Below, piece after piece: positions 14,503 through 36,211 of a stretch of 64,000 nucleotides of DNA; positions within the stretch are counted from its first letter, which is position 1, and every line of letters begins with the position of its first letter. Source of the DNA: Flavobacteriales bacterium. Lineage in GTDB: Bacteria; Bacteroidota; Bacteroidia; Flavobacteriales_F; PHOS-HE28. Both the position numbers and the translations under genes were made by a program. The DNA lies in NCBI GenBank assembly GCA_023957375.1, contig JAMLHB010000003.1, positions 379,830 to 443,829 on the forward strand. Direction: 5' to 3'. Below the pieces are notes generated by a model that worked only from the letters and a program-made list of their open reading frames with translations, made no database searches and was not told the DNA's origin.

Positions 14503-15440
14503 TCGAAGATGGGGCATCGTACAATGGCTTTTTCGGGGTCCAGGGGCGTACAGGGATAGATCGCCAGAATGAGTTCGTGCGTGTTGGAGCCGCCCACCCG
14601 CAACTTGCTGGTGGTGACATCATAGCTGTAGCCCAGGGTGAAGTACTTCAGGAAAGGTACCTTAAGCATGAAGGCCACGGCATCCTGGTTGCGGTAACTG
14701 ACGCCCAGGCCCACTTTGCGCCGATACTCCAGCATCACGTTCAGGTCCATGGCCAAGGGGGTGGAAGGAGCCACCTTCAGCAGGGTGCTGGGCACCACGC
14801 TGAACTTGCGGCTGACGCGGAAGCGGTGCCCCGCGCTGAGGATGTACTGGCGGGCGAGCCGGGTCTCCAGGCCGATCTTCTCCACGCGGTTGCCCAACAG
14901 CTGTTGGATGGACAGGCCCGCCCATGTGCTCTTGCCGTAAAGCCAGATGCCCGGTGTAATGTCCGGATAGACCAGCACCGCGCCGTTGTTCACCAAGGCG
15001 GGGTCGTTGTTGTCCATGGCATATACGTCTCCCAGGGAGAGCTTCTCCTGCTTGATCCCACCGAAGAAGCCCAAGGACAGGAAAAAATCCTGCTTCATCT
15101 GAATGTGATAGGCGTAGGCCAATTGCAGGGTGGTGTAGCCCAGCGGCCCGGTTTCATCGGCCTCCACAAATGCGCCCACCCCGTGCCTATTGGCATGGAA
15201 GCCCTTGCGCTTGGGCTTGATCACCCCGTTGATGGTGGCCCAGCCGGTGGTGGGTGCGCCCGGAAAGCCCACCCATTGCTGACGATAGCCCAAGCGCACA
15301 TCGATGCAGTCCTTGCTGCCCGCCACGGCCGGGTTGATGGCGAACATGTTGAACACATACTGCGTGTACTGCGCGGTTTGCTGGGCCCGCACACCTGCCA
15401 GGGCGGAAAGCAAAACAAGGAACAGGGCGGTGCAGCGCAT
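14499..15440 (-). CDS. PorP/SprF family type IX secretion membrane protein
   Basis: A 313-residue protein with a signal peptide (MRCTALFLVLLSALAGVRAQ) and the family opening QTAQYTQYVFNMFAINPAVA, then GYRQQWVGFPGAP. Alternating strand-like segments and FTLGYSYDVTTSKL near the end fit a beta-barrel of the PorP/SprF type. Its ATG overlaps the stop of the upstream type B protein (ATGA at 15437-15440), suggesting translational coupling, and its own stop overlaps the ATG of the SprB giant. By position it most likely serves the upstream 332-residue type B protein, while the giant has its own partner downstream. Confidence 0.9.
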   Translation of the reverse strand: MRCTALFLVLLSALAGVRAQQTAQYTQYVFNMFAINPAVAGSKDCIDVRLGYRQQWVGFPGAPTTGWATINGVIKPKRKGFHANRHGVGAFVEADETGPLGYTTLQLAYAYHIQMKQDFFLSLGFFGGIKQEKLSLGDVYAMDNNDPALVNNGAVLVYPDITPGIWLYGKSTWAGLSIQQLLGNRVEKIGLETRLARQYILSAGHRFRVSRKFSVVPSTLLKVAPSTPLAMDLNVMLEYRRKVGLGVSYRNQDAVAFMLKVPFLKYFTLGYSYDVTTSKLRVGGSNTHELILAIYPCTPLDPEKAIVRCPIFE

Positions 15441-16438
15441 CAGCGGACGATGGTGATGAAACCGGTATAGGGATCGGACTTGCCCCCCACGTCGTTGACC
15501 TGGATGTACCAGTAGTAGGTGGCGGTGGGCAGCCCCGACCCGTCAAAGGGGTCCTTGTAGCCGATGCTGTGGAACACGCGCTGGCCCCAGCGGTCGTACA
15601 CGCTCACCTCGGCCTGCGGGAAGCTTCGCAGTTCGGGGATCTCCCAGGTATCGTTGATGCCATCGCCATTGGGCGTAAAGGTGTTCACCGGGTTCACCAG
15701 GCGAACCACGTTCACGGTGAGGGCATCTTCGTAGATGCACCCATTGATCTCGGTGGACACCGTGTACACCGTGGTTTCACCCGGTTGCGCCACCGGGTCG
15801 GCAATGGTGTTCCCGCTGAGGCCGCTGGTGGGGCTCCACTCATAGGTGGTGCCTCCCGTGGCGTTCAGCTGGGTGCTTCCCCCCTGGGGGATCTGCACAT
15901 CGGGCCCCGCATCGAAATCCACGTCCACCACATCCACCCCGGGGCCGCTTACCTCAATGGTGAAGCCGCATTGCGCGGCCATGGTGGCACTGCCGTTGCG
16001 CATGCCGCTCACCATCACCCAATAGGTGGTGCCGGGCAACAGGTCTTGGTTGGTGGTGGCGGAAAAGGGCAGCGAATCCCATTGGCAGGCGGAGGCGGGC
16101 TGAAAGCTGCTGGCCGTGCAACTGCCGTCGCCCGCCAACACCACCACGGCCAGCTCATTGTCCATGCCGGGCAGGTCGGGGCAGTTGATGTTGCCGATGG
16201 ACACGGTGGCCGCCCCGCCCACGCTGTTGGTGGTAAAGCTGTACCACACGCCCACGGCGCCCGGCTGGCAATAGGCCGGCATGGTGAGGTTCTGTGCCCC
16301 GGTATTGTCCCCCGCCATGGACTGCTGGGCGCAAAGGCCGATGGCGTTTTCACAGTTGCTGTTCACCGGCGGTTGGGCGGCCAGCAGCAAGGAAGCCAGG
16401 CTGGCCGCGGCGATCAGCAGGGGGCGTGGGAAGGGCAT
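15440..16438 (-). CDS. Secreted protein with T9SS type B (gliding-motility-associated) C-terminal domain
   Basis: 332 residues from the ATG at 16438, chosen because a -7-like box (TACCTTCG, 16466-16459) lies between it and a more upstream in-frame ATG at 16510. A signal peptide (PLLIAAASLASLLLAAQP) is followed by a Cys-containing domain (CENAIGLCAQQS, VWYSFTT, TTYWVMVSGM) resembling pre-peptidase-type beta-sandwiches. Next is an Ig/PKD-like segment (TYEWSPTSGLS). The type B sorting domain covers about the last 85 residues (NTFTPNGDGINDTWEIP, VYDRWGQRVF, ATYYWYIQVND). It heads the operon and is coupled to its PorP partner. Specific function unknown. Confidence 0.88.
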   Translation of the reverse strand: MPFPRPLLIAAASLASLLLAAQPPVNSNCENAIGLCAQQSMAGDNTGAQNLTMPAYCQPGAVGVWYSFTTNSVGGAATVSIGNINCPDLPGMDNELAVVVLAGDGSCTASSFQPASACQWDSLPFSATTNQDLLPGTTYWVMVSGMRNGSATMAAQCGFTIEVSGPGVDVVDVDFDAGPDVQIPQGGSTQLNATGGTTYEWSPTSGLSGNTIADPVAQPGETTVYTVSTEINGCIYEDALTVNVVRLVNPVNTFTPNGDGINDTWEIPELRSFPQAEVSVYDRWGQRVFHSIGYKDPFDGSGLPTATYYWYIQVNDVGGKSDPYTGFITIVR

Positions 16439-16458
16439 GCACACTCGGCGGGTTGCGC

Positions 16459-16466
16459 CGAAGGTA
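16459..16466 (-). promoter_or_regulatory. -7 promoter box of the adhesin operon
   Basis: Minus strand TACCTTCG, 21 bases before the ATG at 16438, matches the Bacteroidota -7 element (TAnnTTTG with a C at the seventh base). No clear TTG at -33. It would drive the whole minus-strand adhesin/PorP operon. Confidence 0.5.
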
Positions 16467-16586
16467 GGCTGCTGCTTTTCCCGGTTTCCGCGCGCGAAGC
16501 GCAGTTTCACACACGCCAGTGTTGGTGCCCGGAGGCCGCCTTGCGCCCTTTACCGATGGAGCGGGCCATGCAGTGCGGCCGGGTAG

Positions 16587-16658
16587 TGGCCCCACCAGGA
16601 ATCGAACCTGGATCTAGAGTTTAGGAAACTCCTATTCTATCCGTTGAACTATGGGGCC
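16587..16658 (-). tRNA. tRNA-Arg, anticodon CCU
   Basis: Read on the minus strand this folds into a full cloverleaf. The acceptor GGCCCCA pairs with TGGGGCC, the D-arm stem is GTTC/GAAT, and the anticodon stem GGAGT/ACTCT encloses loop TTCCTAA (anticodon CCT). The T-arm is CCAGG-TTCGATT-CCTGG. The discriminator base is A and the CCA tail is not encoded. It reads AGG codons. Confidence 0.95.
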
Positions 16659-16870: not shown

Positions 16871-16901
16871 TTGCCCGGATCATTTCCGCCGGTTACATTT
16901 G
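16871..16901 (+). promoter_or_regulatory. Promoter of gene A: TTG-N20-TACATTTG
   Basis: TTG at 16871-16873 and TACATTTG at 16894-16901 are separated by 20 bases, a full match to the Bacteroidota -33/-7 consensus. Transcription should start near 16908, which rules out in-frame start codons before it and supports the ATG at 16967. Confidence 0.75.
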
Positions 16902-16966
16902 ATTTTCGGCCTCTACTTCATCCCGGCAGGCATTGGGTAATCTTCCTTTCACAACCACTCCCACTC

Positions 16967-19900
16967 ATGAAGAAACATTCCTCCTTGGGCGCATTCACGG
17001 CATCCGCAGCATTGGTGTTGGCCTGTGCCGCAAATGCCGGTGCGCAGGTGGCCACTACTTACGCCTTTTCATCCAGCACCGGCACCCAAACGCTGATCAC
17101 GGGCGGCACTAAGCTGAACAGTGGCAACGCCTTTGATGATGAAGTTTACATGGTGAACTTTTCCCCGGCCTTTACCTTCGATGGTACCGCCTACACGACC
17201 ATGTATGTCAGCACAAACGGTTTTATCACGTTCGGCAGCGGCGCTACCGCATCGAACTACACACCATTGAGCTCAAATGCCGGATACTCCGGGGCCATTG
17301 CTCCATTCGGGGCAGACTTGGATGCGGCAAACAGCGGCACCCGGGAAGTTCGGTGGCAAGTCGTGGGCGCGGAGGTGGTGGTACAATGGCGAGGTGCCCA
17401 ACGGTACGCCTTTAATGGCAACGAAGCATTCACCCTTCAAGTTCGCTTGAACACCACTACCGGGGAGATCAAGTTCATATACAGTAATGTCTCCAACTTG
17501 AAGAACAGCACTCTCCGCCAACCAGAAGTGGGCTTGCGCGGACCCAACAACACCTTCAGCACCAACGTGAACAACCGTTTGGTGGGCACTGGCAGCGAGG
17601 ATTGGGATACGAGCCTGCCCGGAACGGCGAATGATGATAAATGCCGGTTCACCAACCAGAGCCCGTCAAAAAGTTTCAGCGCTGGCCTGACCTACACGTG
17701 GACGCCCTGCACGCCCCCAACGATCAACTCCGTAACGAGCAATTCACCCATCTGTTCCGCAGATGCTCTTCAGTTGCACGTGGATGCTTCGGGCACCGGT
17801 CTTACTTACCTGTGGACGGGCACGGGAACCTTCAGCCCGGATGCGGCCAGCGCAGATGTTACGGTGACCAATGCCGCGACCGGCAGTTATTCCGTGGCAG
17901 TCTCCAACAGCTGCACCACGGTGAACGGAAGCGTGTCCGTTACGGTGAATCAGTCCCCCACCGGTGTTTCCGCCACCAGCAGCACGAATTCCGTGTGCGC
18001 TTCATCCAATTTGGTGGACTTGACCGCCACCGGCTCAATACCCGGTGCCACGATCCTCTCGCAAGACTTCAACAGCGGCATCGCCCCGTGGACCACTACC
18101 AATACCAGCACCGGGGGCACACCGGCCAATGCTGCTTGGACCGCAAGAGCGGACGGCTACACTGTGAGCAGCCAAACTTTTCACAGCAACGACGCCTCGC
18201 AATTCGTGATGAGCAATTCGGATGCCCAGGGGAATGGGGGTACAACTGCAACCACCATCCAGTCCCCGAGCTTCAGTACGGTGGGGTACACTGATGCCAC
18301 ACTTACTTTCTATCACCATTTCCGGGCATATTCCGGAGATGACAACGGCAATGTGGAGGTCTCCACAAACGGATCTTCATGGACCTCCTTGCAAACCATT
18401 TCATCCACCCAAGGAAGTTCCGCAGGATTCGTGCAGAGCAGCGTCAGCCTCAGTGCCTATTTGAACCAACCGACGGTGTATGTACGGTTCCGGTATGCTG
18501 CCACGTGGGATTGGTACTGGGCCATTGACAATGTAACCGTCACCGGCACCGGCACGCCCTCATTCGCATGGACATCCACGCCTGCAGGCTTCACCTCCAA
18601 TGTGCAGAATCCCACCGGCGTGGCGGTCACACAGAACACCGTGTTCACGGTCACAGCCGCATCAACGAACGGTTGTACTGTGCAGGCCAATACGGGGACC
18701 ATCACATATTTGAACCCTTCGGCCACCATCAGCTACCCGGCCGGGCCGCACGCCATTGGCAGCGGCACACTGTCCGTAACCCAAACCGGTACCCCAGGCG
18801 GCAGCTACAGTGCCACACCTGCAGGCCTTGCGCTGAATGCCACCACCGGTGAGATCGACCTGGCCACCAGCAGTGCGGGTACGTATACCGTTACCTACGG
18901 GGCCAATACACCATGCCCCTATTCCACGACGACTCAGGTGGTACTGGCGGTGGCCGGTTGCATGGATCCCTTGGCGGACAATTACAACAGTGCCGCCACC
19001 TCCGATGACGGCAGCTGCACCTACTGCGCACCCACCATCACCTACAACGCACCCACGCCAACGCCCATCACCATCGGCAGCGGCATCCCCGACCAAAATA
19101 TGGCCGTATCGCAGGACTGCCGCGGCATCGACGTGGCCTTGAGCGCCTTTGAACGCTACGTGGGCGCCATCATTCCCGCTGGCAACGTGTACACCACCAC
19201 CACGGGCAACAGTCCTACCAGCGGCAGTGATCCCACACCGGACCCCGTGATGGCGCGCTGGAACCTGCTGGGAAGCATCGACCTGGGCACGTATGACTTC
19301 ACCCAGGTGAACGTGTTCCTGGACCTGGACTTCGACCCGGCGGCCGCGCCGGTGTGGAACACCATGAACCTCAGCCAGGGCATGATCAACAACGGCATGG
19401 GGGCACTGCACGTGTACCAAGCCTCGGAGAACCTGGCCGCAGGCTACTGGGGCATCGCCTTCCCCGGCGTCACCTTCGACCCCCACGTGCCCGGTGTGTA
19501 TGACATCCGCGTACGCCTGGAATCCGCCTCTTCCAATGAGGAACTGGTGAACCTGGCCATTCAAGTGGTGGTGCAAGCACCGGAGATCACCTACTACAGC
19601 CAAGGTTCGGGCAACTTCAACAACCCCATCTGGGACGTGGTGCCGGTGGGTACGGCCAGCACCGCCAGCTACGGGCCCACCGCCAACTTCATTGTGCAGA
19701 ACGGCCACACCGTGGCCAACACCGCCGACGTGGACGTGAAGAACCTGACCGTGAACGCCGGCGGCACCCTGGCCCTGGGCAGTGCGACCACCTTGACCGT
19801 GCACGGCGATGAGGCCATCTTCGACGGCGCCCTCACCGCGGCCAACACCAGCACGCTGGCCTTGGCCGGTGCGGATGCCACCATCCTGGAAAGCACCGGC

Positions 19901-22174
19901 GGCACCCTGAGCCTGTGGAACCTGACGGTGAGCACCCCGCAGGGCACCCTCACCGACGCCACCCTCAACATCCGAGGCACCCTGCAACTGGACGCCGGCG
20001 ACTTTGACGCCTCCTTGGGCAGCGTGACCCTCGCCAGCGCCGCCAGCGGCACCGGCCGCCTGGGACCCGTGGCAGCGGGCGCCGACTACATCGGCAACCT
20101 CACCGTGCAGCGCTACATCCCCGCAGGGCACACCAACTGGCGCATGCTCGCCAGCCCCGTGGCCGGTGCCAAGGTTCAGCACTGGAAGGACGACTTCATC
20201 ACCGCCGGGTTCCCCGGCTCGCACTACCCCGCATTCGACGACCCCGTGGGGAGCGGAAACCCCTGGCCAAGCGTCCGCTGGTACGATGAGACCAACGCCT
20301 ACGCACTGGCCGATTCCGGCGTGGTGGGCGTAAGCTCCAACACCCAGCCGCTCAACCCCGGCCAAGGATTCCTGGCCTGGAGCGGGGACAACTTCTCCAC
20401 CACCATGGCCTTCACCGTGGACCTCACCGGGGAACCCACCATCGCCAAAAACCCCTTCACCCTGCCCATGAGCTTCACCTCCTCGGGAACCCTGGAGGCC
20501 GACGGCTGGAACTTAGTGGCAAACCCCCTGCCCAGCCCCATCGACTTCACGCTCATCAACCGGGGGGCCGATGTGGGCAACGCCTACTGGATCTTCGACC
20601 CCGTGGCCGGCAACAACCGCGCATGGACCAACGGCGTGGGACAGGGCGGCCTCAACGGCAAGATCCAAAGCAGCCAAGGCTTCTGGGTGAAGGCCGACGG
20701 CACCGGCCTCACCACCACCCTGGATGAATCCGCCAAGGTCAACCAAAGCGGCGGAGGCACCTTCGGGGGCGAACAAAACCCCGTCCTGCCCATCCTCAAC
20801 CTCAACATCGCCAGCAACCTGAACACGTACAGCGACGAGGCCACCCTGGTATTCGCCCAGGGCACCCCCGCACGCGATGGCATCGATGCCCTGAAGATGA
20901 CCTTCAAGACCATCGGCGCACCGCAGATCGGCGTGATCAGCACCGACGGGCAACAGCTTGCGGTGGACTTCTTCGGAAGCTACTCCACCGCCGTGCAGAT
21001 CCCCCTGAAGGTGGACGTGGACCTCACCGGCACCTACACCATCACCGCCGCCATGGCGGGCATCAACTCCCTCTCCTGCATCAGCCTCACCGACCTGCAG
21101 ACCGGGGTAGTGACCCCGCTGACCGACGGCGCCGCTTACAGCTGCACCATCAACGCGAACGAGCCAGCCGATGGCCGCTTCGTGATCAACGGCTCCGCGC
21201 CAACGCCCCTGTACTTAGACAACGCGCTCTGCCATGACCAGAACGGAACCGCCACCGTGGTGGCCGGGGCAGATCCGATCAACATCACCTGGACCGACGT
21301 CTTCGGCAACGTGATCAGCCAATTGAACAACGTAGCCGACGGCGTGGTTGAACTTCCCCTGGCCGCCGGCAACTACCAGGTGCACATCACCCCCGGCGGC
21401 GCCTGCGGCGAACTGGCCGCGGACTTCACCATCACCGCCCCCGAGGCCATCGGCAGCGATGTGCTGCTAACGGCCACCAGCTGCCCCGCCAGCGACGACG
21501 GCAGCGTAATGGTCGCCACCGTAACGGGCGGTACCGCACCTTACACCTACCTGTGGAACACCGAAGCCACGGCCAACAGCATCACTGGCACCGCAGGCAG
21601 CTACTCGGCCACCATCACGGACGCCAACGGTTGCACCAGCACCGTGAATGCCGAGATCCCCGCCGGTGAAGGTGCCATCGCGCAGTTCAATACGTCCACG
21701 GGCACGCTGATAGTGAACACGCCCGTGCAGTTCACCAACACCTCCGTGCTGGCCGACAACTACCTCTGGGACTTCGGAGACGGCACCACCAGCACCGAAA
21801 GCGACCCCGCCCACACGTACACCTTGCCCGGCACCTACACCGTGAGCCTCACGGCCACCGGAGGCGATTGCTCCTTCACCACCACCATGGAGGTGACCGT
21901 GGATATCGGAACCGCCGTTACCACCCTGCCCCGCACCAACGACATGGCCGTGTGGGCCACGCCCGACCACATCGTGGTGCAACATCCCTTCGGCAACGCA
22001 CCGGTGGACGTGGACGTGTACGATGCTACCGGCCGTTTGGCCATGGCACACACCGCCATCTCCCGGCCGGAACGCATCACCCTCAGCGACCGCAGCCTGA
22101 ACACCGGCGTGTGGTTCGTGCGCATCACCAGCGGCGATATGCAACGGACCTTCCGCGTGCCGCTGGTCCGGTAA
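16967..22174 (+). CDS. Gene A: large multidomain T9SS type A secreted protein
   Basis: 1735 residues. The start is fixed by the upstream promoter and gives the signal peptide MKKHSSLGAFTASAALVLAC...AGAQ. In order: a beta-sandwich (about 25-245, GFITFGSG, VVVQWRG), Ig-like segments, and a jelly-roll/MAM-like domain (about 360-530, LSQDFNSGIAPW, YWAIDNVTVTG). Then a calcium-site-like stretch near 664 (CMDPLADNYN..DDGSCTY), and from residue ~876 a region opening GNFNNPIWDVVPVG with a strand-rich NGHTVANTADVDVKNLTV part. One SprB-like repeat, a PKD domain (YLWDFGDGTTS, ~1590-1630) and a type A sorting domain (last ~75 residues, VDVYDATGRLA, TGVWFVRI) complete it. Likely exported and retained at or released from the surface. 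Substrate or partner unknown. Its 3' half is duplicated in gene C. Confidence 0.9.
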   Translation: MKKHSSLGAFTASAALVLACAANAGAQVATTYAFSSSTGTQTLITGGTKLNSGNAFDDEVYMVNFSPAFTFDGTAYTTMYVSTNGFITFGSGATASNYTPLSSNAGYSGAIAPFGADLDAANSGTREVRWQVVGAEVVVQWRGAQRYAFNGNEAFTLQVRLNTTTGEIKFIYSNVSNLKNSTLRQPEVGLRGPNNTFSTNVNNRLVGTGSEDWDTSLPGTANDDKCRFTNQSPSKSFSAGLTYTWTPCTPPTINSVTSNSPICSADALQLHVDASGTGLTYLWTGTGTFSPDAASADVTVTNAATGSYSVAVSNSCTTVNGSVSVTVNQSPTGVSATSSTNSVCASSNLVDLTATGSIPGATILSQDFNSGIAPWTTTNTSTGGTPANAAWTARADGYTVSSQTFHSNDASQFVMSNSDAQGNGGTTATTIQSPSFSTVGYTDATLTFYHHFRAYSGDDNGNVEVSTNGSSWTSLQTISSTQGSSAGFVQSSVSLSAYLNQPTVYVRFRYAATWDWYWAIDNVTVTGTGTPSFAWTSTPAGFTSNVQNPTGVAVTQNTVFTVTAASTNGCTVQANTGTITYLNPSATISYPAGPHAIGSGTLSVTQTGTPGGSYSATPAGLALNATTGEIDLATSSAGTYTVTYGANTPCPYSTTTQVVLAVAGCMDPLADNYNSAATSDDGSCTYCAPTITYNAPTPTPITIGSGIPDQNMAVSQDCRGIDVALSAFERYVGAIIPAGNVYTTTTGNSPTSGSDPTPDPVMARWNLLGSIDLGTYDFTQVNVFLDLDFDPAAAPVWNTMNLSQGMINNGMGALHVYQASENLAAGYWGIAFPGVTFDPHVPGVYDIRVRLESASSNEELVNLAIQVVVQAPEITYYSQGSGNFNNPIWDVVPVGTASTASYGPTANFIVQNGHTVANTADVDVKNLTVNAGGTLALGSATTLTVHGDEAIFDGALTAANTSTLALAGADATILESTGGTLSLWNLTVSTPQGTLTDATLNIRGTLQLDAGDFDASLGSVTLASAASGTGRLGPVAAGADYIGNLTVQRYIPAGHTNWRMLASPVAGAKVQHWKDDFITAGFPGSHYPAFDDPVGSGNPWPSVRWYDETNAYALADSGVVGVSSNTQPLNPGQGFLAWSGDNFSTTMAFTVDLTGEPTIAKNPFTLPMSFTSSGTLEADGWNLVANPLPSPIDFTLINRGADVGNAYWIFDPVAGNNRAWTNGVGQGGLNGKIQSSQGFWVKADGTGLTTTLDESAKVNQSGGGTFGGEQNPVLPILNLNIASNLNTYSDEATLVFAQGTPARDGIDALKMTFKTIGAPQIGVISTDGQQLAVDFFGSYSTAVQIPLKVDVDLTGTYTITAAMAGINSLSCISLTDLQTGVVTPLTDGAAYSCTINANEPADGRFVINGSAPTPLYLDNALCHDQNGTATVVAGADPINITWTDVFGNVISQLNNVADGVVELPLAAGNYQVHITPGGACGELAADFTITAPEAIGSDVLLTATSCPASDDGSVMVATVTGGTAPYTYLWNTEATANSITGTAGSYSATITDANGCTSTVNAEIPAGEGAIAQFNTSTGTLIVNTPVQFTNTSVLADNYLWDFGDGTTSTESDPAHTYTLPGTYTVSLTATGGDCSFTTTMEVTVDIGTAVTTLPRTNDMAVWATPDHIVVQHPFGNAPVDVDVYDATGRLAMAHTAISRPERITLSDRSLNTGVWFVRITSGDMQRTFRVPLVR

Positions 22175-22229
22175 GCCAATCCTTCAACCCGTGAACAAGG
22201 GCTGCCCGAACGGGTGGCCCTTGTTCTTT
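19592..22229 (+). repeat. Copy 1 of a 2.64-kb near-identical duplication (genes A and C)
   Basis: Bases 19592-22229 match 26267-28904 at a constant offset of 6675 with no insertion or deletion. The match covers the last ~860 codons of gene A and its terminator. By eye about the first 570 bases after 19606 are identical and substitutions accumulate toward the 3' end. Confidence 0.9.
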
Positions 22230-22230
22230 T
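22193..22230 (+). terminator. Terminator of gene A
   Basis: A 10-base perfect stem GAACAAGGGC/GCCCTTGTTC with an inner CCCG-AA-CGGG helix, followed by a T-rich tail (TTTT). It lies 18 bases after the stop and is identical to the terminator of gene C. Confidence 0.8.
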
Positions 22231-22243
22231 CAGCGGCGGGTAT

Positions 22244-22273
22244 TTGTGCAAAAGCAAGACGGTGTTATGTTGC
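22244..22273 (+). promoter_or_regulatory. Promoter of gene B: TTG-N19-TATGTTGC
   Basis: TTG at 22244-22246 and TATGTTGC at 22266-22273 are 19 bases apart, matching the Bacteroidota -33/-7 pattern with one departure in the -7 box. The ATG at 22304 follows 30 bases later. Confidence 0.6.
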
Positions 22274-22303
22274 CGCCGTTAACAGCCTCCCCCCTTACTC
22301 TCC

Positions 22304-24109
22304 ATGAAACATCGCTTCACCTCATTCGCCTGTGCAGCATTGGCACTTGCATCACTATCCATCCCCACGTGGGCACAGAACTGGCACACTGTGGGCACCG
22401 GCACAGCCTCCAACGGACCGAATGGCGTGCCATGCCCCTTTGGGGATATTTACGCCGGGCAGCGCGCCCAATACATCTACCTCGCTTCGGAACTCACTGC
22501 GGCAGGGCTCTCGGTCAATGACACCATTGTCCGTGTGCGCTGGGTGGTCACCGCGCTCAATGGGTCGGGGATGCACGAGAACTACACGATCCGAGTGGGC
22601 CATACCTCCGCCATGTCCCTCTCCGGGTTATTGGCCACGCCCACCGGTGCGAGCACCACTCCGGTGGACTACCAACCCGTAGTTGGCAACAACGACTTCA
22701 CGCTCCATTCCCCGTTCATTTGGAACGGCACCAGCAACCTGTTGGTGGAAGTGACCCACTTCAGCCCCACCTATGGCACAGCCACTGCCAATGCCTCCGT
22801 AGCCTTCACCAGCACGGCTCCCGTGAAGCGCAGCTTCTCCCTGCTGGACGATCTGATGTGGCGAACGGATCAAACCGTGCCATTTGCCGGCGAAGTGCTG
22901 AACTCCACCGGGCTGCCCAACATTGTGCTCGGCGTGGCCCAACCTTGCGCAGGGCTTGTGGCCTCGGACCTGTCCCTCTGCACAGGTGATGCCGTGCCGC
23001 CGGGCCAAGGCCTTTCCGTGGAAGGCTGCACGGAAAGCCTCGGCGGCCAATTCACTGCCTCCTTCAACTTCCCGAACACGAACCTGGCATGCACGGGTTC
23101 CAATTATGTGCTGCGTTCCACGCTGAACCTGCCCGAATTGCCCAGCGGTGCGGTGGTGCAAGCAGGTCGCCTGATCTTGACCAGTGTAATGGCCGAAGAC
23201 CCCGTGTGGTTAAGCGACCTCTACCTGAAACTCAGCGGCAGCATTGAAGGAGAGATCCAATTGATGCCCGGCTTTGACGAGTACTCAGGCACGGTGCCTG
23301 AGCTGATGATCACCATCAACGGGCCCTACGAACCAGGCCCGGCACAACTGCTCACACGCAGCACATATGGCACCGGCTACATCGGTTCAGCCCGTGTTGA
23401 GTTCGATTACCTGTTGTCCACGCCTATCTGGTACGATGCCGCCGAAGGCGGCAACATGGTAGCCTATGGAGAGGGCACGATCGATCCGGTGGCCCTTGGG
23501 CTAGCCAGCACCGCAACGGAAGGAACCACGTTGCTCCACGTGGATTGCGGTGTGGCTTCCACGGCCTGCACGGGGCAACGGGCCCCCGTTGCGTTCAATG
23601 TGGTGGCCGCGCCCGAACCTGCCTTCTCCGTAGTTGGGGAACCGGTGGTGGCAGGCATTCCTGCCTCATTCTCAAACAACAGCAACGGGGCGGGCAATTA
23701 TGCCTGGGACTTCGGGGACGGCACTGCAAGCACCGAAACGGCGCCACAACATACATGGTCCATGCCGGGCACATACACGGTAACACTCACTATGGACAAC
23801 GGCACCTGCGCGACAGAAGCCACGGAACAAGTTGTGGTTGAAGTGAACACGGGCTTGTGCCCTACCTCCCCCGACCACTTGCGTGTGTTCGGAACGCAGG
23901 AAGGCATTGTGGTTGAACGGACATTTGGCACGGGGCCGATCCAGGTGGAATTGATGGATGCCGTGGGCCGCACCGTGTACAACCAGAAGCTGGAAGGCGG
24001 GAAAGGGAGCATGCTGGTACCATTTGGCCATCCTGCCGCAGGCCTATGGTTGGTGCGGGTGACAACAGGAGACGTGCAACGCACCTTCCGCATGTCGTTG
24101 GTGCGGTAA
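22304..24109 (+). CDS. Gene B: T9SS type A secreted protein with PKD domain
   Basis: 601 residues with a signal peptide ending SIPTWAQ. The N-terminal ~400 residues are beta-rich and contain HTVGTGTASNGPNG, FGDIYAGQRAQYIYLASEL and a four-Cys central part (LCTGDAVPPGQGL, CTESLGGQF). Next comes a PKD domain (about 455-505, YAWDFGDGTAS, GTYTVTLTM) and a type A sorting domain (VELMDAVGRTVYN, AGLWLVRVTTGDVQRTFRM). The N-terminal part is clearly paralogous to that of gene C (same order of motifs and similar length) and the sorting domain resembles those of A and C. It lies between A and C with its own promoter. Function beyond export is not recognised. Confidence 0.85.
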   Translation: MKHRFTSFACAALALASLSIPTWAQNWHTVGTGTASNGPNGVPCPFGDIYAGQRAQYIYLASELTAAGLSVNDTIVRVRWVVTALNGSGMHENYTIRVGHTSAMSLSGLLATPTGASTTPVDYQPVVGNNDFTLHSPFIWNGTSNLLVEVTHFSPTYGTATANASVAFTSTAPVKRSFSLLDDLMWRTDQTVPFAGEVLNSTGLPNIVLGVAQPCAGLVASDLSLCTGDAVPPGQGLSVEGCTESLGGQFTASFNFPNTNLACTGSNYVLRSTLNLPELPSGAVVQAGRLILTSVMAEDPVWLSDLYLKLSGSIEGEIQLMPGFDEYSGTVPELMITINGPYEPGPAQLLTRSTYGTGYIGSARVEFDYLLSTPIWYDAAEGGNMVAYGEGTIDPVALGLASTATEGTTLLHVDCGVASTACTGQRAPVAFNVVAAPEPAFSVVGEPVVAGIPASFSNNSNGAGNYAWDFGDGTASTETAPQHTWSMPGTYTVTLTMDNGTCATEATEQVVVEVNTGLCPTSPDHLRVFGTQEGIVVERTFGTGPIQVELMDAVGRTVYNQKLEGGKGSMLVPFGHPAAGLWLVRVTTGDVQRTFRMSLVR

Positions 24110-24582
24110 AGGGATAATTCAACACTTGGTCAAGGGCTGCCCGAAAAGATGGTCCTTCACTTGCAACAAAATGCAGCCGGCGCTGCGTACATCACACACC
24201 CATAACCGTGGATGGAACCATCTCGGACAGGCCTTTTCCTGGATCAATGCCCGCAGCCAAGCGGCGCGCCTCCCTTCGTCCGCCCCATCGTTCCGGGAGC
24301 GCCCCGTTCGCCCTATGTTTGCCGCCCCTTGCGGCGATGTATTGAGGAGCAGCTGAGCAATTGCCAACGGGTGAAAAACAAAAACTGCCACACCCCCACC
24401 CTGTGCAGCCAGTGAACCATTCCCGTTTTGCCACGCGTGGGGAAAGTCCTTCGTCACCCACCCAGCCACTTCCACAACACCCATTGTGCACACTATGCCG
24501 GTCCTCCGTGAGCATGTAAGCTCCCTACATGGGGTGCCAGCACCGTGCCAGATCATTGCCTTCCCAGCCCGCCCGCAACATC
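24110..24582 (+). other. Gene-free spacer between genes B and C
   Basis: No convincing gene. At 24127-24156 there is a damaged version of the terminator seen after A and C (CAAGGGCTGCCCGAA is kept, the right arm is mutated to GGTCCTTCA). TATGTTTG at 24314-24321 is a perfect -7 box but has no -33 TTG and is followed only by very short frames. This may be a relic of a lost gene. Confidence 0.4.
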
Positions 24583-24590
24583 TATATTGC
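24583..24590 (+). promoter_or_regulatory. -7 promoter box of gene C
   Basis: TATATTGC, 62 bases before the ATG at 24653, resembles TAnnTTTG. A TTC rather than TTG lies at the 19-base spacing. The box argues against the earlier in-frame ATG at 24545. Confidence 0.45.
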
Positions 24591-24652
24591 CGCACTTGGC
24601 TCCGTGTGCCTGCTCCACATTGGCCCACATGCCACAGTCCATACCAAAACCA

Positions 24653-27600
24653 ATGAACCACTTCCCGCTCCCCCCCCCGTTCCACAAGAGCATCCGCCTG
24701 GCACATATAGGCTATCTGCTCGTCTTTCTTTTCGCAACCGCGTTGCCGTGGCAAACGATGCAAGGCCAAACCTGGCACTCCATCGGCTCCGGCACAAACA
24801 CCAATACCAACACCCAGTACCCCACCCCATTCGGAGATTACTATGCCGGTCAGCGGATGCAATCCATCTATTTGGCATCGGAGCTCAGCGCAGCGGGTCT
24901 GCAGGCGGGCGATCCGATCTCCTCCATCCGATGGAACGTCCTTGCGCTGCAAGGCGTGGATCTGTTGGACAACTTCACTGTCCGGTTGGCCCACACCACC
25001 CAATCCACGTTGAGCGGGTTCCAAGTGTTTCCGGTCGGTGGCGTGGCCACCACCCCCATTGACTACCAACCTGTACTGGGGCAGAACGAGTTCATCTTCA
25101 CGTCCAACTTCACGTGGGACGGCACGAGCAACCTCCTCGTCCAAGTCACCCACTTCAGCACAGCCTACGGGGATTATTCCGCCAATGCCCAAGTGGCATC
25201 CACCAACACCACGGCCAACCGCACCTACATTCTGGCGGACGACCTCATGTTCACCGCCACACAGGCTACCGCCCTGAGCGGAGGAGTCCTCGCTTCCAAC
25301 CTGCGGCCCGACGTGGAGTTTGGTGTGGCCCCACCGTGTACGGCCTTGTCCGCCACGGGGTACACCATCTGCCAGAACGGAACCGTTCCCTCCGGGGAAG
25401 GCTTGGTTGCGGCGGCATGCAGCGAAGGCACCGGCGGCGTTTTCACCGCCACCTACAACTTTCCCGGAACCAATTTCCTCCTTTCTGGCACTTCCTATAC
25501 CACCCGGTCCACATTGAACGTACCTACGCTGCCCGCAGGTGCGGTGCTGGTGAATTCCCGACTGATCCTCACGGACGTCAAGGCTTCGGGGAACACCCCT
25601 TGGAGCAACCTCTACATCCGGTTGCAAGGGCAAATTACAGGAACCGTTCAGCTCTTTCCCAACCATACCGGTTACCAAGGAACTGCGCCGGAACTGATCT
25701 TCCAGTTATCCGGTACCGCCCCGGTGGGCAACGTGGTCCTGCAAACCAGGAAATCTCCCAATACCACAGGTGACAGCCGGATCGCATCGGCCCGCCTGGA
25801 GTTTGACTATGTGCTGCCCACGCCACACTGGTACACCGCCGCCACAGGCGGATCACCCATTTCCACCGGCAACAGCGTGTTTGACCCCGTGGCAGCAGGT
25901 TTGGTGAACCCGGCTGTGGTGGGCAACACCACCTTCTACGTGGATTGCGGCGTACCCTCTGTACCCTGTGCGGGCGGAAGTCGAACGCCGGTGGTCTTCT
26001 CCGTGGTAACTCCACCCGCTGCCACCATCAGTTACCCTGTAGGCCCGCACAACTTGGGCAGCGGCACCTTGGCGGTTACGCAAACCGGCACTTCCGGTGG
26101 AACGTATTCCGCTACGCCGGCCGGGCTTGTGCTTAATGCCACCACCGGCGAGATCGACCTGGCCACCAGTGCGGCGGGGACTTATACGGTTACCTATGGG
26201 GGCAACGCTCCCTGCGCTTATTCCACCACGGCACAGGTTGAACTGGTGGCTGCATCTGCAATAACGTACTACAGCCAGGGATCGGGCAACTTCAACAACC
26301 CCATCTGGGACGTGGTGCCGGTGGGTACGGCCAGCACCGCCAGCTACGGGCCCACCGCCAACTTCATTGTGCAGAACGGCCACACCGTGGCCAACACCGC
26401 CGACGTGGACGTGAAGAACCTGACCGTGAACGCCGGCGGCACCCTGGCCCTGGGCAGTGCGACCACCTTGACCGTGCACGGCGATGAGGCCATCTTCGAC
26501 GGCGCCCTCACCGCGGCCAACACCAGCACGCTGGCCTTGGCCGGTGCGGATGCCACCATCCTGGAAAGCACCGGCGGCACCCTGAGCCTGTGGAACCTGA
26601 CGGTGAGCACCCCGCAGGGCACCCTCACCGACGCCACCCTCAACATCCGAGGCACCCTGCAACTGGACGCCGGCGACTTTGACGCCTCCTTGGGCAGCGT
26701 GACCCTCGCCAGCGCCGCCAGCGGCACCGGCCGCCTGGGACCCGTGGCAGCGGGCGCCGACTACATCGGCAACCTCACCGTGCAGCGCTACATCCCCGCA
26801 GGGCACACCAACTGGCGCATGCTCGCCAGCCCCGTGGCCGGTGCCAAGGTGCAGCACTGGAAGGACGACTTCATCACCGCCGGGTTCCCCGGCTCGCACT
26901 ACCCCGCATTCGACGACCCCGTGGGGAGCGGAAACCCCTGGCCAAGCGTCCGCTGGTACGATGAGACCAACGCCTACGCACTGGCCGATTCCGGCGTGGT
27001 GGGTGTAAGCTCCAACACCCAGCCCCTCAGCCCCGGGCAAGGTTTCCTGGCCTGGAGCGGGGACAACTTCTCCACCACCATGGCCTTCACCGTGGACCTC
27101 ACCGGGGAACCCACCATCGCCAAAAACCCCTTCACCCTGCCCATGAGCTTCACCTCCTCGGGAACCCTGGAGGCCGACGGCTGGAACTTAGTGGCCAATC
27201 CCCTGCCCAGCCCCATCGACTTCACGCTCATCAACCGGGGGGCCGACGTGGGCAACGCCTACTGGATCTTCGACCCCGTGGCCGGAAACAACCGCGCATG
27301 GACCAACGGTGTGGGACAGGGCGGCCTCAACGGCAAGATCCAAAGCAGCCAAGGCTTCTGGGTGAAGGCCGACGGCACCGGCCTCACCACCACCCTGGAT
27401 GAATCCGCCAAGGTCAACCAAAGCGGCGGAGGCACCTTCGGGGGCGAACAAAACCCCGTCCTGCCCATCCTCAACCTCAACATCGCCAGCAACCTGAACA
27501 CGTACAGCGACGAGGCCACCCTGGTATTCGCCCAGGGCACCCCCGCACGCGACGGCATCGATGCCCTGAAGATGACCTTCAAGACCATCGGCGCTCCGCA

Positions 27601-28849
27601 GATCGGCGTGATCAGCACCGACGGGCAACAGCTTGCGGTGGACTTCTTCGGAAGCTACTCCACCGCCGTGCAGATCCCCCTGAAGGTGGACGTGGACCTC
27701 ACCGGCACCTACACCATCACCGCAGCCATGGCGGGCACCAACTCCCTCTCCTGCATCAGCCTCACCGACCTGCAGACCGGGGTAGTGACCCCGCTGACCG
27801 ACGGCGCCGCGTACAGCTGCACCATCAACGCGAACGAGCCAGCCGATGGCCGCTTCGTGATCAACGGCTCCGCGCCAACGCCCCTGTACATAGACAACGC
27901 GCTCTGCCATGACCAGAACGGAAGCGCCACCGTGGTGGCCGGGGCGGAACCGATCAACATCACCTGGACCGACGTCTTCGGCAACGTGATCAGCCAATTG
28001 AACAACGTAGCCGACGGCGCGGTTGAACTCCCCCTGGCCGCCGGCAACTACCAGGTGCACATCACCCCCGGCGGCGCCTGCGGCGAACTGGCCGCGGACT
28101 TCACCATCACCGCCCCCGAGGCCATCGGCAGCGATGTGCTGCTCTCGCCCACCAGCTGCCCCGCCAGCGACGACGGCAGCGTAATGGTCGCCACCGTGAC
28201 GGGCGGTACCGCACCTTACACCTACCTGTGGAACACCGGAGCCACGGCCAACAGCATCACTGGCACCGCAGGCAGCTACTCGGCCACCATCACGGACGCC
28301 AACGGTTGCACCAGCACGGTGAATGCCGAGATCCCCGCCGGTGAAGGTGCCATCGCGCAGTTCAGTACACCCACAGGCACGCTGATAGTGAACACGCCCG
28401 TGCAGTTCACCAACACCTCCGTGCTGGCCGACAACTACCTCTGGGACTTCGGAGACGGCACCACCAGCACCGAAAGCGACCCCGCCCACACGTACACCTT
28501 GCCCGGCACCTACACCGTGAGCCTCACGGCCACCGGAGGCGATTGTTCCTTCACCACCACGCTGGACATCACCGTGGAGATCGGAACCGCCGTCACCACC
28601 CTGCCCCGCACCAACGACATGGCCGTGTGGGCCACGCCCGACCACATCGTGGTGCAGCATCCCTTCGGCAGTGCACCGGTGGACGTGGACGTGTACGATG
28701 CCACCGGCCGTTTGGCCATGGCACGCACCGCCATCTCCCGGCCGGAACGCATCACCCTCAGCGACCGCAGCCTGAACACCGGCGTGTGGTTCGTGCGCAT
28801 CACCAGCGGCGATGTGCAACGGACCTTCCGCGTGCCGCTGGTGCGGTAA
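24653..28849 (+). CDS. Gene C: T9SS type A secreted protein, mosaic of B-like front and A-like back
   Basis: 1398 residues from the ATG at 24653, placed after the promoter box and giving a signal peptide around residues 15-42 (LLVFLFATALPWQTMQGQ). Residues ~43-440 parallel gene B (WHSIGSGTN, FGDYYAGQRMQSIYLASEL, CSEGTGGVF). Residues ~455-535 match a segment of A (TISYPVGPHNLGSGTL, TGEIDLATSAAGTYTVTYGG). From codon ~538 the sequence is the 2.64-kb copy of A's back half: NGHTV-type strand-rich region, SprB-like repeat, PKD domain and type A sorting domain. Compared with A it lacks the calcium-site-like segment between the two shared blocks. Expected to be exported by T9SS. Ligand unknown. Confidence 0.88.
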   Translation: MNHFPLPPPFHKSIRLAHIGYLLVFLFATALPWQTMQGQTWHSIGSGTNTNTNTQYPTPFGDYYAGQRMQSIYLASELSAAGLQAGDPISSIRWNVLALQGVDLLDNFTVRLAHTTQSTLSGFQVFPVGGVATTPIDYQPVLGQNEFIFTSNFTWDGTSNLLVQVTHFSTAYGDYSANAQVASTNTTANRTYILADDLMFTATQATALSGGVLASNLRPDVEFGVAPPCTALSATGYTICQNGTVPSGEGLVAAACSEGTGGVFTATYNFPGTNFLLSGTSYTTRSTLNVPTLPAGAVLVNSRLILTDVKASGNTPWSNLYIRLQGQITGTVQLFPNHTGYQGTAPELIFQLSGTAPVGNVVLQTRKSPNTTGDSRIASARLEFDYVLPTPHWYTAATGGSPISTGNSVFDPVAAGLVNPAVVGNTTFYVDCGVPSVPCAGGSRTPVVFSVVTPPAATISYPVGPHNLGSGTLAVTQTGTSGGTYSATPAGLVLNATTGEIDLATSAAGTYTVTYGGNAPCAYSTTAQVELVAASAITYYSQGSGNFNNPIWDVVPVGTASTASYGPTANFIVQNGHTVANTADVDVKNLTVNAGGTLALGSATTLTVHGDEAIFDGALTAANTSTLALAGADATILESTGGTLSLWNLTVSTPQGTLTDATLNIRGTLQLDAGDFDASLGSVTLASAASGTGRLGPVAAGADYIGNLTVQRYIPAGHTNWRMLASPVAGAKVQHWKDDFITAGFPGSHYPAFDDPVGSGNPWPSVRWYDETNAYALADSGVVGVSSNTQPLSPGQGFLAWSGDNFSTTMAFTVDLTGEPTIAKNPFTLPMSFTSSGTLEADGWNLVANPLPSPIDFTLINRGADVGNAYWIFDPVAGNNRAWTNGVGQGGLNGKIQSSQGFWVKADGTGLTTTLDESAKVNQSGGGTFGGEQNPVLPILNLNIASNLNTYSDEATLVFAQGTPARDGIDALKMTFKTIGAPQIGVISTDGQQLAVDFFGSYSTAVQIPLKVDVDLTGTYTITAAMAGTNSLSCISLTDLQTGVVTPLTDGAAYSCTINANEPADGRFVINGSAPTPLYIDNALCHDQNGSATVVAGAEPINITWTDVFGNVISQLNNVADGAVELPLAAGNYQVHITPGGACGELAADFTITAPEAIGSDVLLSPTSCPASDDGSVMVATVTGGTAPYTYLWNTGATANSITGTAGSYSATITDANGCTSTVNAEIPAGEGAIAQFSTPTGTLIVNTPVQFTNTSVLADNYLWDFGDGTTSTESDPAHTYTLPGTYTVSLTATGGDCSFTTTLDITVEIGTAVTTLPRTNDMAVWATPDHIVVQHPFGSAPVDVDVYDATGRLAMARTAISRPERITLSDRSLNTGVWFVRITSGDVQRTFRVPLVR

Positions 28850-28904
28850 GCCAATCCTTCAACCCGTGAACAAGGGCTGCCCGAACGGGTGGCCCTTGTT
28901 CTTT
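26267..28904 (+). repeat. Copy 2 of the 2.64-kb near-identical duplication
   Basis: Matches 19592-22229 at offset 6675 without gaps. Substitutions give roughly 15 residue changes in ~860, for example NPGQ to SPGQ, NTEA to NTGA and TTMEVTVDIG to TTLDITVEIG. Identity ends at the terminator tail (CTTTC here, CTTTT there). Confidence 0.9.
28868..28904 (+). terminator. Terminator of gene C
   Basis: Same hairpin as after gene A (GAACAAGGGC/GCCCTTGTTC with inner CCCG-AA-CGGG) followed by TTGTTCTTTC, 18 bases after the stop. Confidence 0.8.
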
Positions 28905-29062: not shown

Positions 29063-31174
29063 TCACCGCACCTCCCCGCCTGCCGGTACCTCGCTGCCCG
29101 GCTGCACGAAGACCAGCTTGCCTTGGGCATCCTCGGCCATCAGCACCATGCCTTGGCTCTCCACGCCACGCATCTTGCGCGGCTCCAGGTTGCAGAGCAC
29201 CAATACCTGCTTGCCCGGAAGTTCTTCCGGCGCGAAGTGCTGCGCGATCCCGCTGACGATGGTGCGCGGAGCGGCCTCGCCCACATCAATGGAAAGCTTC
29301 AGCAGCTTGTCCGCCTTGGGTACTTTCTCCGCTTCCTTGATGGTGCCAATGCGGATGTCCATCCGCGAAAAATCATCGAAACTGATGTGCGGCTTCATGG
29401 CCGGTTCAGGTGTTATTACAGGTGCTGTGGCCGTTGCGGGAGGCTGCTGCACCACGGGGGTGTTGGACTTCAGGCGGTCCACTTCGGCTGCGATCTCTTC
29501 GTCACTGATCGGCTTGAACAGATGCACCGCCTCCGCGATCGGCGCACCGGGCACCATGAGCCCTTCGCGCAACGCATCGCCCCACTTCAGTTCGCCCAGG
29601 CCGAGCATGGTGCGCAGCTTTTGCGCGGTGAAGGGCAGGAAGGGTTCCAGCACCACGCTAAGGGCCGCCGTGATGCGCAGGCTGTTGAAAAGCACCGTGC
29701 GCACGCGGTCCGGGTCGGTTTTGTGGAGCTTCCACGGCTCGGTGTCGGTGAGGTACTTGTTGCCTAAGCGCGCGGCATTCATGGCCGTGAGCAACGCATC
29801 GCGGAAGCGGAACTTATCGATGTCCTCGGCCACCTTGCCGGGAATGGCGGAAAGTTCGCCCCAGAGCACGGTGTCGTGTTCGCCTTGCGCCGCGTTGGAC
29901 GGCGCCGGTTGCGGCACTTTCCCGTCGTAGTACTTGTTGCACAGCACGAACACGCGCTGCACGAAGTTGCCGATGATGGCCACCAGCTCATTGTTGTTCT
30001 TGTCCTGGAAATCCTTCCAAGTGAACTCGCTGTCGCGGAACTCCGGCAGGATGGTGGCCAAGGCGTAGCGCAGTTCATCCTGCCGGTCCGGCCAGCGCTC
30101 GATGTACTCGTGGAGCCACACGGCCCAGTTGCGGCTGGTGCTCAGTTTCTGCCCTTCCAGGTTGAGGAATTCGTTGGCGGGCACGTTCTGCGGCAGGATA
30201 AAGCCGCCGTGCTCCTTCAGTAGGATGGGGAAGATGATGGCATGGAAGACGATGTTGTCCTTGCCGATGAAATGCAGCAGGCGCGTGTCGTCGGCCTTCC
30301 ACCATTTCTCCCAATCGGCGCCGTGGTCGAAGGCCCATTGCTTGGTGGCGCTGATGTAGCCGATAGGCGCATCCAACCACACGTAGAGCGCCTTGCCTTC
30401 CGCGCCGGGCAGCGGCACGGGCACGCCCCAGGTGAGGTCGCGCGTCATGGCGCGGGGGCGCAACCCTTCCTTCAACCAGCTGTTGCACTGGCCCAGCACT
30501 TGGGGCTTCCATTCGGCGGGATCGTGCTGTTGGGCGCCATCGAGCATGCCGGTGTTGATCCACTCCTGCATCCATTGCTGGCTGCGTTCCATGGGCAGGT
30601 ACCAGTGCTTGGTGGGCTTCAGCACGGGCTTGCTGCCACTGAGGGTGCTCCGCGGATCGATGAGGTCCTTGGGGCTGAGCGCGCTGCCGCATTTTTCGCA
30701 CTGGTCACCGTACGCATCCGGATTCCCGCAGTGCGGGCAGGTGCCCATGATGTAGCGGTCCGCGAGGAATTGCTTGGCCTCGGTGTCGTAGTACTGCTCC
30801 TCGGTGTTCTCCGTAAAAGCGCCGTTGGCGTTGAGCTGCAGGAAGAATTCCTGGGAGGTCTTGCGGTGCAGTTCGCTGCTGGTGCGGTGGTAGATGTCGA
30901 AGCCGATGCCAAAGTCCACGAACGCTTTGCCCATCAGCGCGTGGTACTTGTCCACGATGGCTTGCGGGGTGGTGCCTTCCTTGAGTGCGCGCAGGGTGAT
31001 GGCCGCGCCATGTTCGTCGCTGCCGCAGATGAACAGCACCTCCTTGCCGCGCGCCCGCAGGCTGCGCACGTAGATGTCCGCAGGCAGGTAGGCCCCGGCG
31101 ATGTGGCCGATGTGGAGCGGGCCGTTGGCGTAGGGCAACGCGGCGGTGACGGTGGTGCGGGCGGGGGATTTCAC
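29063..31174 (-). CDS. metG: Methionyl-tRNA synthetase
   Basis: 703 residues. It charges tRNA-Met with methionine in the cytoplasm, using ATP. The class I HIGH motif is at 21-24 (GPLHIGHIAGAY). A zinc knuckle with Cys146, 149, 159 and 162 (CPHCG...CEKCG) matches the zinc-type MetRS. KLSTS at 343-347 stands in for KMSKS. An anticodon-binding helical region follows, then a Pro/Ala/Thr-rich linker (~575-590) and a C-terminal tRNA-binding domain in about the last 110 residues (FSRMDIRIGTI, GIAQHF). The length is right for the long form with the appended domain. The start codon is GTG, as no in-frame ATG precedes it. It is divergent from lepA, with an insertion sequence between them. Confidence 0.97.
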   Translation of the reverse strand: MKSPARTTVTAALPYANGPLHIGHIAGAYLPADIYVRSLRARGKEVLFICGSDEHGAAITLRALKEGTTPQAIVDKYHALMGKAFVDFGIGFDIYHRTSSELHRKTSQEFFLQLNANGAFTENTEEQYYDTEAKQFLADRYIMGTCPHCGNPDAYGDQCEKCGSALSPKDLIDPRSTLSGSKPVLKPTKHWYLPMERSQQWMQEWINTGMLDGAQQHDPAEWKPQVLGQCNSWLKEGLRPRAMTRDLTWGVPVPLPGAEGKALYVWLDAPIGYISATKQWAFDHGADWEKWWKADDTRLLHFIGKDNIVFHAIIFPILLKEHGGFILPQNVPANEFLNLEGQKLSTSRNWAVWLHEYIERWPDRQDELRYALATILPEFRDSEFTWKDFQDKNNNELVAIIGNFVQRVFVLCNKYYDGKVPQPAPSNAAQGEHDTVLWGELSAIPGKVAEDIDKFRFRDALLTAMNAARLGNKYLTDTEPWKLHKTDPDRVRTVLFNSLRITAALSVVLEPFLPFTAQKLRTMLGLGELKWGDALREGLMVPGAPIAEAVHLFKPISDEEIAAEVDRLKSNTPVVQQPPATATAPVITPEPAMKPHISFDDFSRMDIRIGTIKEAEKVPKADKLLKLSIDVGEAAPRTIVSGIAQHFAPEELPGKQVLVLCNLEPRKMRGVESQGMVLMAEDAQGKLVFVQPGSEVPAGGEVR

Positions 31175-35540: not shown

Positions 35541-35979
35541 CAATGTCATTCAGTCAAGGGAGCATTTATCAACGGATCATGGTCCGTAGGCTGGAAGCCT
35601 GCGATGTTGTCGTTCCACAGGCTGGAAGCCTGTGCCACAACCGTGTTCTTCCTCCACAGGCTGGAAGCCTGTGCTACAACCGTGTTCTTCTTCCACAGGC
35701 TGGAAGCCTGTGCTACAACCGTGTTCTTCTTCCACAGGCTGGAAGCCTGTACTACAACCATGTTCTTCTTCCACAGGCTGGAAGCCTGTGCTACAACCAT
35801 GTTCTTCCTTCACAGGCTGGAAGCCTGTGCTACAACCGTGTTCTTCTTCCACAGGCTGGAAGCCTGTGCTACAACCGTGTTCTTCTTCCACAGGCTGGAA
35901 GCCCGTGATACGACAGTGCTCTTCCTCCACAGGCTGGAAGCCTGTGCTACAATCTTCCTCCCTTAACTGAATGACATTG
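35541..35979. mobile_element. Non-autonomous (MITE-like) element with IS4-type ends around a palindrome array
   Basis: 439 bases bounded by 20-base inverted repeats: CAATGTCATTCAGTCAAGGG on the left, and on the right the reverse complement of CAATGTCATTCAGTTAAGGG, one mismatch apart. The right end matches the right end of the IS at 31420-32864 at 19 of 20 positions. The interior has no transposase and consists almost wholly of a 39-base palindromic tandem array. No clean target duplication is visible (TGGGAGACCC versus GCGGTGGCCC). Confidence 0.75.
35582..35953. repeat. Ten 39-base tandem repeats, each with a palindrome
   Basis: Units start at 35615, 35654, 35693, 35732, 35771, 35810, 35849, 35888 and 35927, with one degraded unit before. 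Each holds CACAGGCTGGAAGCCTGTG (8-base arms AGCCTGTG around GGA) followed by a CTACAACCGTGTTCTTCTTC-like linker. Because 39 is divisible by three, several frames on both strands stay open and encode repeats such as STGWKPV and TGFQPVEEE. These are unlikely to be real proteins. The sequence is not a CRISPR array because the linkers are as conserved as the palindromes. Confidence 0.92.
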
Positions 35980-36211
35980 GCGGTGGCCCCGGGGACAGGG
36001 GTCGATGACGCCGCTACGGTGACAGAAATTGGCCGCTGCGCGCATTCCCGCAGCCGCCCCATACCGCCTGCATGACAGGCGTTATGCCCCTCAACACCCA
36101 AGCGGCATCGGCGTGCAGGAGCAGTTTCTCCTTGGCGGCCCTTGTAACGTCCGAGAACCATTTGCATCGAATGACTGTTGATTGAACAAAAGTTCCAATT
36201 TCAAAACCACA
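35980..36211 (+). other. Leader region before the DUF4142 gene, no gene seen
   Basis: 232 bases between the mobile element and the next gene. No reading frame of substance, no clear promoter pair and no stable hairpin could be supported. Confidence 0.4.

What the first reader, a model, noticed from the sequence alone, without database searches (positions are those of the whole stretch)
19592..28904. 2.64-kb gap-free near-identical copy in genes A and C, with a divergence gradient
The copies share the same offset (6675) throughout and include the terminator. The first ~570 bases are identical by eye while substitutions gather toward the 3' end. This is what partial gene conversion, ongoing between two adhesins 6.7 kb apart, would leave.
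Basis: seen in the sequence. Interest (0 to 1): 0.65.

Follow-up and report, generated by a model that had tools for sequence, protein, structure and literature searches.

The report
Gene conversion between paired secreted-protein genes
Two neighbouring genes for large secreted surface proteins share a nearly identical 2.6-kb back half, most likely because one copy has repeatedly overwritten the other while their front halves stayed different; the process is known from other bacteria, but here it recurs at several loci of a little-studied genus.

Summary
Window 19607-22229 and the sequence 6675 bp downstream differ at 47 of 2623 bases, without indels; the first 569 bases are identical and the block ends at the terminator. 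Genes A and C are type IX secretion (T9SS) cargo with different front parts. Gene conversion is well supported, but the pattern is a step, not a smooth gradient: synonymous divergence is 0 in the first 189 codons and 0.06 afterwards, while outgroups are equally diverged in both parts. Seven codons of the same domain just outside the tract carry four synonymous differences. C's 3' flank is native, next to metG; A matches it only through the terminator, so the 3' end was copied C to A. Eight of ten close relatives have one such gene at this locus. A second tandem pair here shows textbook concerted evolution: front halves pair with orthologues in another species, back halves are identical within each species. 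Five of 76 tandem ORF pairs screened show this 3'-end pattern. It resembles H. pylori babA/babB and P. gingivalis hagA/kgp. Not shown: ongoing conversion, adhesion, read support.

The parts
16967..22174 (+). Gene A, T9SS type A cargo (ORF from 16871; first ATG at 16967): variable N-terminal part, module X, region Y, then the shared block
   Evidence: (TIGR04183 30 bits, cut-off 23)
18716..18964 (+). Module X of A, homologous to C 26015-26263 (77% aa, dS 1.15), outside the tract
18965..19585 (+). Region Y (about aa 699-905 of the A ORF), directly joined to a block in G005, G032 copy 2 and G017; absent from C
19586..19606 (+). Diverged fringe of the block domain (ITYYSQG): same amino acids in A and C, 4 synonymous differences in 7 codons; left edge of the tract
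19607..20175 (+). 569 bp identical to 26282-26850: most recent conversion tract
19607..22229 (+). Shared block in A (855 codons, stop, terminator), 98.2% identical to 26282-28904
22193..22229 (+). Hairpin terminator copied with the block; identity ends at its T-run
22304..24109 (+). Gene B, 601 aa T9SS cargo with PKD, paralogue of the N-terminal part of C (45.6% aa over 493); not part of the tract
24653..28849 (+). Gene C, T9SS type A cargo (ORF from 24545; ATG at 24629 or 24653): C_N domain, module X', shared block
26282..28904 (+). Shared block in C; its 3' flank is homologous to that of G031 over 217 bp up to metG, so this is the native 3' end
29063..31174 (-). metG, conserved right-hand anchor of the locus
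16586..16658 (-). tRNA-Arg(CCT), conserved left-hand anchor of the locus

Best explanation
A and C are two T9SS cargo genes in a variable locus between tRNA-Arg(CCT) and metG. Each had its own version of an 855-residue C-terminal part ('chassis') ending in the T9SS sorting domain. RecA-type homologous recombination (inferred) copied the chassis of C, with stop codon and terminator, over that of A (direction shown at the 3' end only). About 6% synonymous divergence has accumulated since then; a later, shorter event made the first 569 bp identical again. The N-terminal parts do not align well enough to be converted and stay different, so the cell keeps distinct exposed passengers on a common export and anchoring part. 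The same process homogenises the 3' ends of other tandem T9SS cargo genes in this genome and in at least one other species.
For: Tract edges: 4 synonymous differences in 7 codons at the domain start, then 569 identical bases. Not constraint: A versus G031 dS 0.58 in the first 189 codons and 0.54 in the rest, versus G005 0.66 and 0.71; A versus C 0 and 0.06; 8.7 synonymous differences expected in the first part, 0 seen, P about 2e-4. Both genes had blocks before: the Y-block junction of A recurs in G005, G032 and G017, an X-block junction like C's in G008 and, by eye, G062 and G065. Direction: the C-to-metG flank aligns with G031 along all 217 bp at 85%, the A-to-B flank matches only the first 58 bp. 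Tree of 46 block copies: A and C are sisters, 100/100. Independent cases: G000 C1 pair and G002 pair, N halves 73-80% between orthologues and 59-60% within a genome, C halves 100% within and 64% between, with 5' edges within 6 codons of each other, 5 of 76 tandem ORF pairs carry the pattern, all five at the 3' end. G032 pair: interior tract, silent-site global P 0.002.
Against: Only one genome per species was available, so allele exchange between strains could produce parts of the pattern. The A/C pair itself is not significant in the all-pairs GENECONV-like test (global P 0.57). Older tandem block pairs in the genus show no concerted evolution (G008/G062, G011/G067, G016/G061 cluster by orthologue), so homogenisation is not universal. 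Differences polarise 22 to A and 10 to C with 15 uncertain or weak, which fits either faster change in A or residual old A sequence. No reads were seen.
Confidence: 0.72

Rival explanations
1. Recent duplicative fusion: the block plus terminator of one gene was copied once onto a new front part (or a new front part was inserted between two copies), followed by ordinary divergence.
For: 8 of 10 genomes of the close clade have a single block gene at this locus; the two copies are sisters in the tree; one event explains most of the 98% identity.
Against: Homologous but diverged 7-codon fringe at the 5' edge; both junctions (Y-block, X-block) exist in other genomes; the 569-bp identical run still needs a second exchange.
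Confidence: 0.17
2. Exchange with other strains: the locus joins two strain alleles (A followed by B; C next to metG), and the difference between the first 569 bp and the rest reflects import of an allele into one copy by horizontal recombination.
For: Mosaic tracts between species are seen in the same alignment (for example G031/G022 silent sites, global P 0.002); other relatives carry either block-then-B or block-then-metG.
Against: The pattern recurs as within-genome identity at other tandem pairs in two species, which import alone does not predict.
Confidence: 0.15
3. Assembly or polishing artefact.
For: No reads available; short-read polishing can homogenise repeats.
Against: 47 substitutions without indels, both frames open, dN/dS about 0.2, different flanks on both sides, C flank conserved in G031; the contig is 654,696 bp in a 4-contig assembly.
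Confidence: 0.05

Closest known systems
Helicobacter pylori babA/babB and homA/homB (outer membrane protein paralogues)
   Same: 3' segments similar within a strain, 5' segments similar between strains: concerted evolution by intragenomic recombination (passages of PMC2795765 and PMC3960876)
   Different: Different protein family and export route; there many strains were compared and conversion alters receptor binding; here tandem T9SS cargo, no population data, no phenotype
Porphyromonas gingivalis hagA-kgp (and rgpA)
   Same: T9SS cargo genes at one locus with virtually identical 3' ends that recombine (passages of PMC9328147); identical repeats shared by hagA, rgpA and kgp (passages of PMC5266723)
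   Different: Gingipain and cleaved-adhesin domains are not found in A or C; there deletions and domain rearrangements are described; here the genes stay intact and the tract is bounded by the domain start and the terminator

Membership tests
T9SS type A cargo | C-terminal sorting domain TIGR04183 above the curated cut-off | tested here: met
   A 30.0, B 23.3, C 34.3 bits, cut-off 23
T9SS type A cargo | Pfam Por_Secre_tail PF18962 above its cut-off | tested here: not met
   A 20.8, C 19.6 bits, cut-off 27; the NCBIfam model for the same domain is met
T9SS type A cargo | Export and surface attachment by T9SS | not testable with these tools
   PorP/SprF-family gene nearby at 14499-15440
Concerted evolution by gene conversion | Paralogous segments more alike within a genome than orthologous segments between genomes | tested here: met
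   A/C 98% versus 78-80% to G031/G005, sisters in tree; second locus 100% within, 64% between
Concerted evolution by gene conversion | Abrupt change to high divergence within homologous sequence | tested here: met
   A/C 5' edge (short fringe only); C1 pair dS about 1 to 0; G002 pair
Concerted evolution by gene conversion | Statistical support for a tract in the A/C pair after correction over all pairs | tested here: inconclusive
   Global P 0.57, pair P 0.013; within-pair run test P 0.00045
Concerted evolution by gene conversion | Tracts differing among strains of the species | not testable with these tools
   One genome per species held
Gingipain/HagA adhesin family | Cleaved-adhesin or gingipain domains | tested here: not met
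   Pfam scan of A, B, C gives PKD, SprB, Ig_7 and sorting domains only
Site-specific inversion (shufflon-like) system | Inverted repeat sites with a tyrosine or serine recombinase gene nearby | tested here: inconclusive
   Block copies are direct repeats; two weak 23-nt inverted pairs only; no recombinase among the window ORFs scanned, but not all window ORFs were scanned

The most novel reading that the evidence does not exclude
In this genus, homogenisation of the 3' ends of tandem T9SS cargo genes is a standing process that keeps one shared export and anchoring chassis per genome while N-terminal passengers diversify and are swapped; its 5' edge is stable over species divergence because it sits at a domain boundary where homology stops.
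Probability: 0.4. Interest if true: 0.6.

Novelty: new member of a known kind. Interest (0 to 1): 0.42.

Why it matters
It extends a pattern described for pathogen surface proteins (3'-end concerted evolution) to the T9SS cargo of uncultured Flavobacteriales and shows it at several loci with species-level controls. If it is a standing process, T9SS C-terminal parts in this genus carry genome-specific rather than gene-specific history, which matters for annotation, for trees built on such domains, and for assembly of these repeats.

Tried and rejected
Constraint as the cause of the identical 5' part: rejected, outgroup dS is equal in both parts. Genus-wide concerted evolution of all tandem block genes: rejected by the tree. 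Conversion between block gene and B: coding tails show none clearly, only a shared 103-bp 3' flank in G022. Structure of the block: AlphaFold2 with six sequences gave mean pLDDT 39.5, so no fold search was run and the fold of the first ~600 residues stays unknown. Literature: 'gene conversion' with 'type IX secretion' gave 5 papers, 'gene conversion' with T9SS 1 paper, 'concerted evolution' with Bacteroidetes, gene conversion and surface 2 papers, a five-term Flavobacterium search 0; none listed describes this locus, judged from titles and abstract starts, and only the abstract of PMC5266723 and passages of two P. gingivalis and two H. pylori papers were read. Genus name: relatives carry only broad titles (Flavobacteriales and Bacteroidetes MAGs); PHOS-HE28 was a guess from memory (search listing) and is not claimed.

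Full report
What is there. Window 19607-22229 is repeated 6675 bp downstream with 47 differences in 2623 bases and no indel. The first 569 bases are identical; a step at 20176 is strongly preferred to even density (delta-logL 11.6, above all 1000 shuffles), while a further rise toward the 3' end is weak (P 0.031). The copy covers the last 855 codons of genes A (ORF 16871-22174) and C (ORF 24545-28849), the stop codon and a strong hairpin terminator.

The genes. A, B and C carry the T9SS type A sorting domain above the NCBIfam cut-off and PKD domains; A and C also carry a SprB repeat. They sit beside a PorP/SprF gene and another T9SS cargo gene (14499-16510). 'Adhesin' is plausible but untested. 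B is a paralogue of the front part of C (45.6% aa).

The locus. In close relatives the place between tRNA-Arg(CCT) or its neighbours and metG holds a gene with this C-terminal block on changing front parts. Counting this genome, 8 of 10 members of the close clade have one block gene (G031, G005, G028, G019, G017, G002, G022, G012; in G019, G017, G002 and G022 only one side of the locus was seen) and 2 have two (G000, G032). In the whole genus set 42 of 45 genomes have a match to the block at E 1e-30 or better.

Why conversion. First, the 5' edge lies inside the domain: the first seven codons, ITYYSQG, encode the same residues in A and C but differ at four synonymous sites, and the next 569 bases are identical. 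The upstream module X, 77% identical in amino acids, has dS 1.15. Second, constraint does not explain the clean run: dS to G031 and G005 is about the same in both parts, and 8.7 synonymous differences were expected where none is seen. Third, both junctions occur elsewhere: Y-block in G005, G032 and G017, X-block in G008 and by eye in G062 and G065. Fourth, the 3' flanks differ: C's whole 217-bp flank to metG aligns with G031 at 85%, A's only through the terminator (58 bp), so the 3' end of A came from C or a C-like source. The polarised differences are 22 on A, 10 on C, 3 weak and 12 ambiguous of 47 (22 versus 10, P 0.05).

Limits for this pair. A GENECONV-like test over 11 rows of the clade does not reach significance for A/C after correction (global P 0.57; pair P 0.013; silent sites pair P 0.076), because the two are similar throughout; the G019 row was left out of that test because its block is incomplete. 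The same test finds a tract in the G032 pair (silent sites nt 869-1391, global P 0.002), and also tracts between species, so the region is generally mosaic. Part of the all-site signal may be uneven conservation.

Independent cases. In the same genome, contig C1, two tandem PKD/CHU_C genes (L053 7065-9881 and 9871-12882, minus strand) have front halves 59% identical in amino acids and identical last halves, with 6 differences between 7063 and 8599. Species G002 has the same two genes: front halves pair with their orthologues (73% and 80%; 59-60% within a genome), back halves are 100% identical within each genome and 64% between them. The 5' edges lie within six alignment columns of each other (columns 516 and 522). 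This is concerted evolution in both species, either by separate events or by continuous homogenisation since their ancestor. I then screened 36 stretches chosen because they hold neighbouring T9SS genes: of 76 same-strand ORF pairs with a match (shadow ORFs on the wrong strand included), 5 have low dS at one end and high dS elsewhere, namely A/C, the C1 pair and the L156 pair in G000, and L155 and L167 in G002; in all five the low part is the 3' end. None was flagged in the stretches of G008, G009, G015, G016, G022, G024, G032, G062 and G066. G002 is probably a short-read assembly (record title of L109), so its identical repeats need read support.

Not universal. In the tree of 46 block copies, tandem copies in several other genomes cluster with their orthologues, i.e. 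they are old and not homogenised.

How it works. Inferred: homologous recombination between neighbouring genes that share only the C-terminal part, ending where homology ends (terminator) or becomes poor (domain start). Shown: tract edges, divergence pattern, flank evidence. Not shown: RecA dependence, rate, present activity, function of the front parts.

Known relatives. H. pylori babA/babB and homA/homB show the same layout, with 3' segments alike within strains and 5' segments alike between strains (passages). P. gingivalis hagA and kgp are T9SS cargo genes of one locus with virtually identical 3' ends that recombine (passages). The finding is therefore a new member of a known kind; what is less expected is its recurrence at several loci of one genus known mainly from metagenome assemblies (titles), with matching edges in two species.

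Noticed in passing
L053 7065-12882 (G000 C1) and L155 2882-10450 (G002): Tandem PKD/CHU_C genes with identical 3' halves within each species and orthologous front halves between species; 5' tract edges within six codons.
   Followed up: yes
L156 4739-14980 (G000 C1): Duplicated two-gene unit; the long genes are homogenised toward the 3' end (dS 0-0.13 in the seven 3' windows), the short genes are not (dS 0.69-1.46).
   Followed up: partly
L167 6849-11074 (G002): Tandem T9SS genes with low dS only in the last three 80-codon windows.
   Followed up: partly
L044 7538-9903 (G022): The block gene and gene B share 86% identity over 103 bp of 3' flank although their coding tails do not.
   Followed up: partly
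31443-32810: DDE transposase gene between metG and lepA; the gap there is 93 bp in G005 and 3.4 kb in G032.
   Followed up: no
35565-35993: Tandem array with a 39-bp period.
   Followed up: no
L054 3544-10140 (G000 C1): About 29 copies of a 222-bp repeat, a few units 249 bp.
   Followed up: no
21924-21946, 24091-24113, 28599-28621: A 23-nt stretch at the end of B is an imperfect inverted match (87%) to a site in both block copies; near chance level by my own estimate.
   Followed up: no
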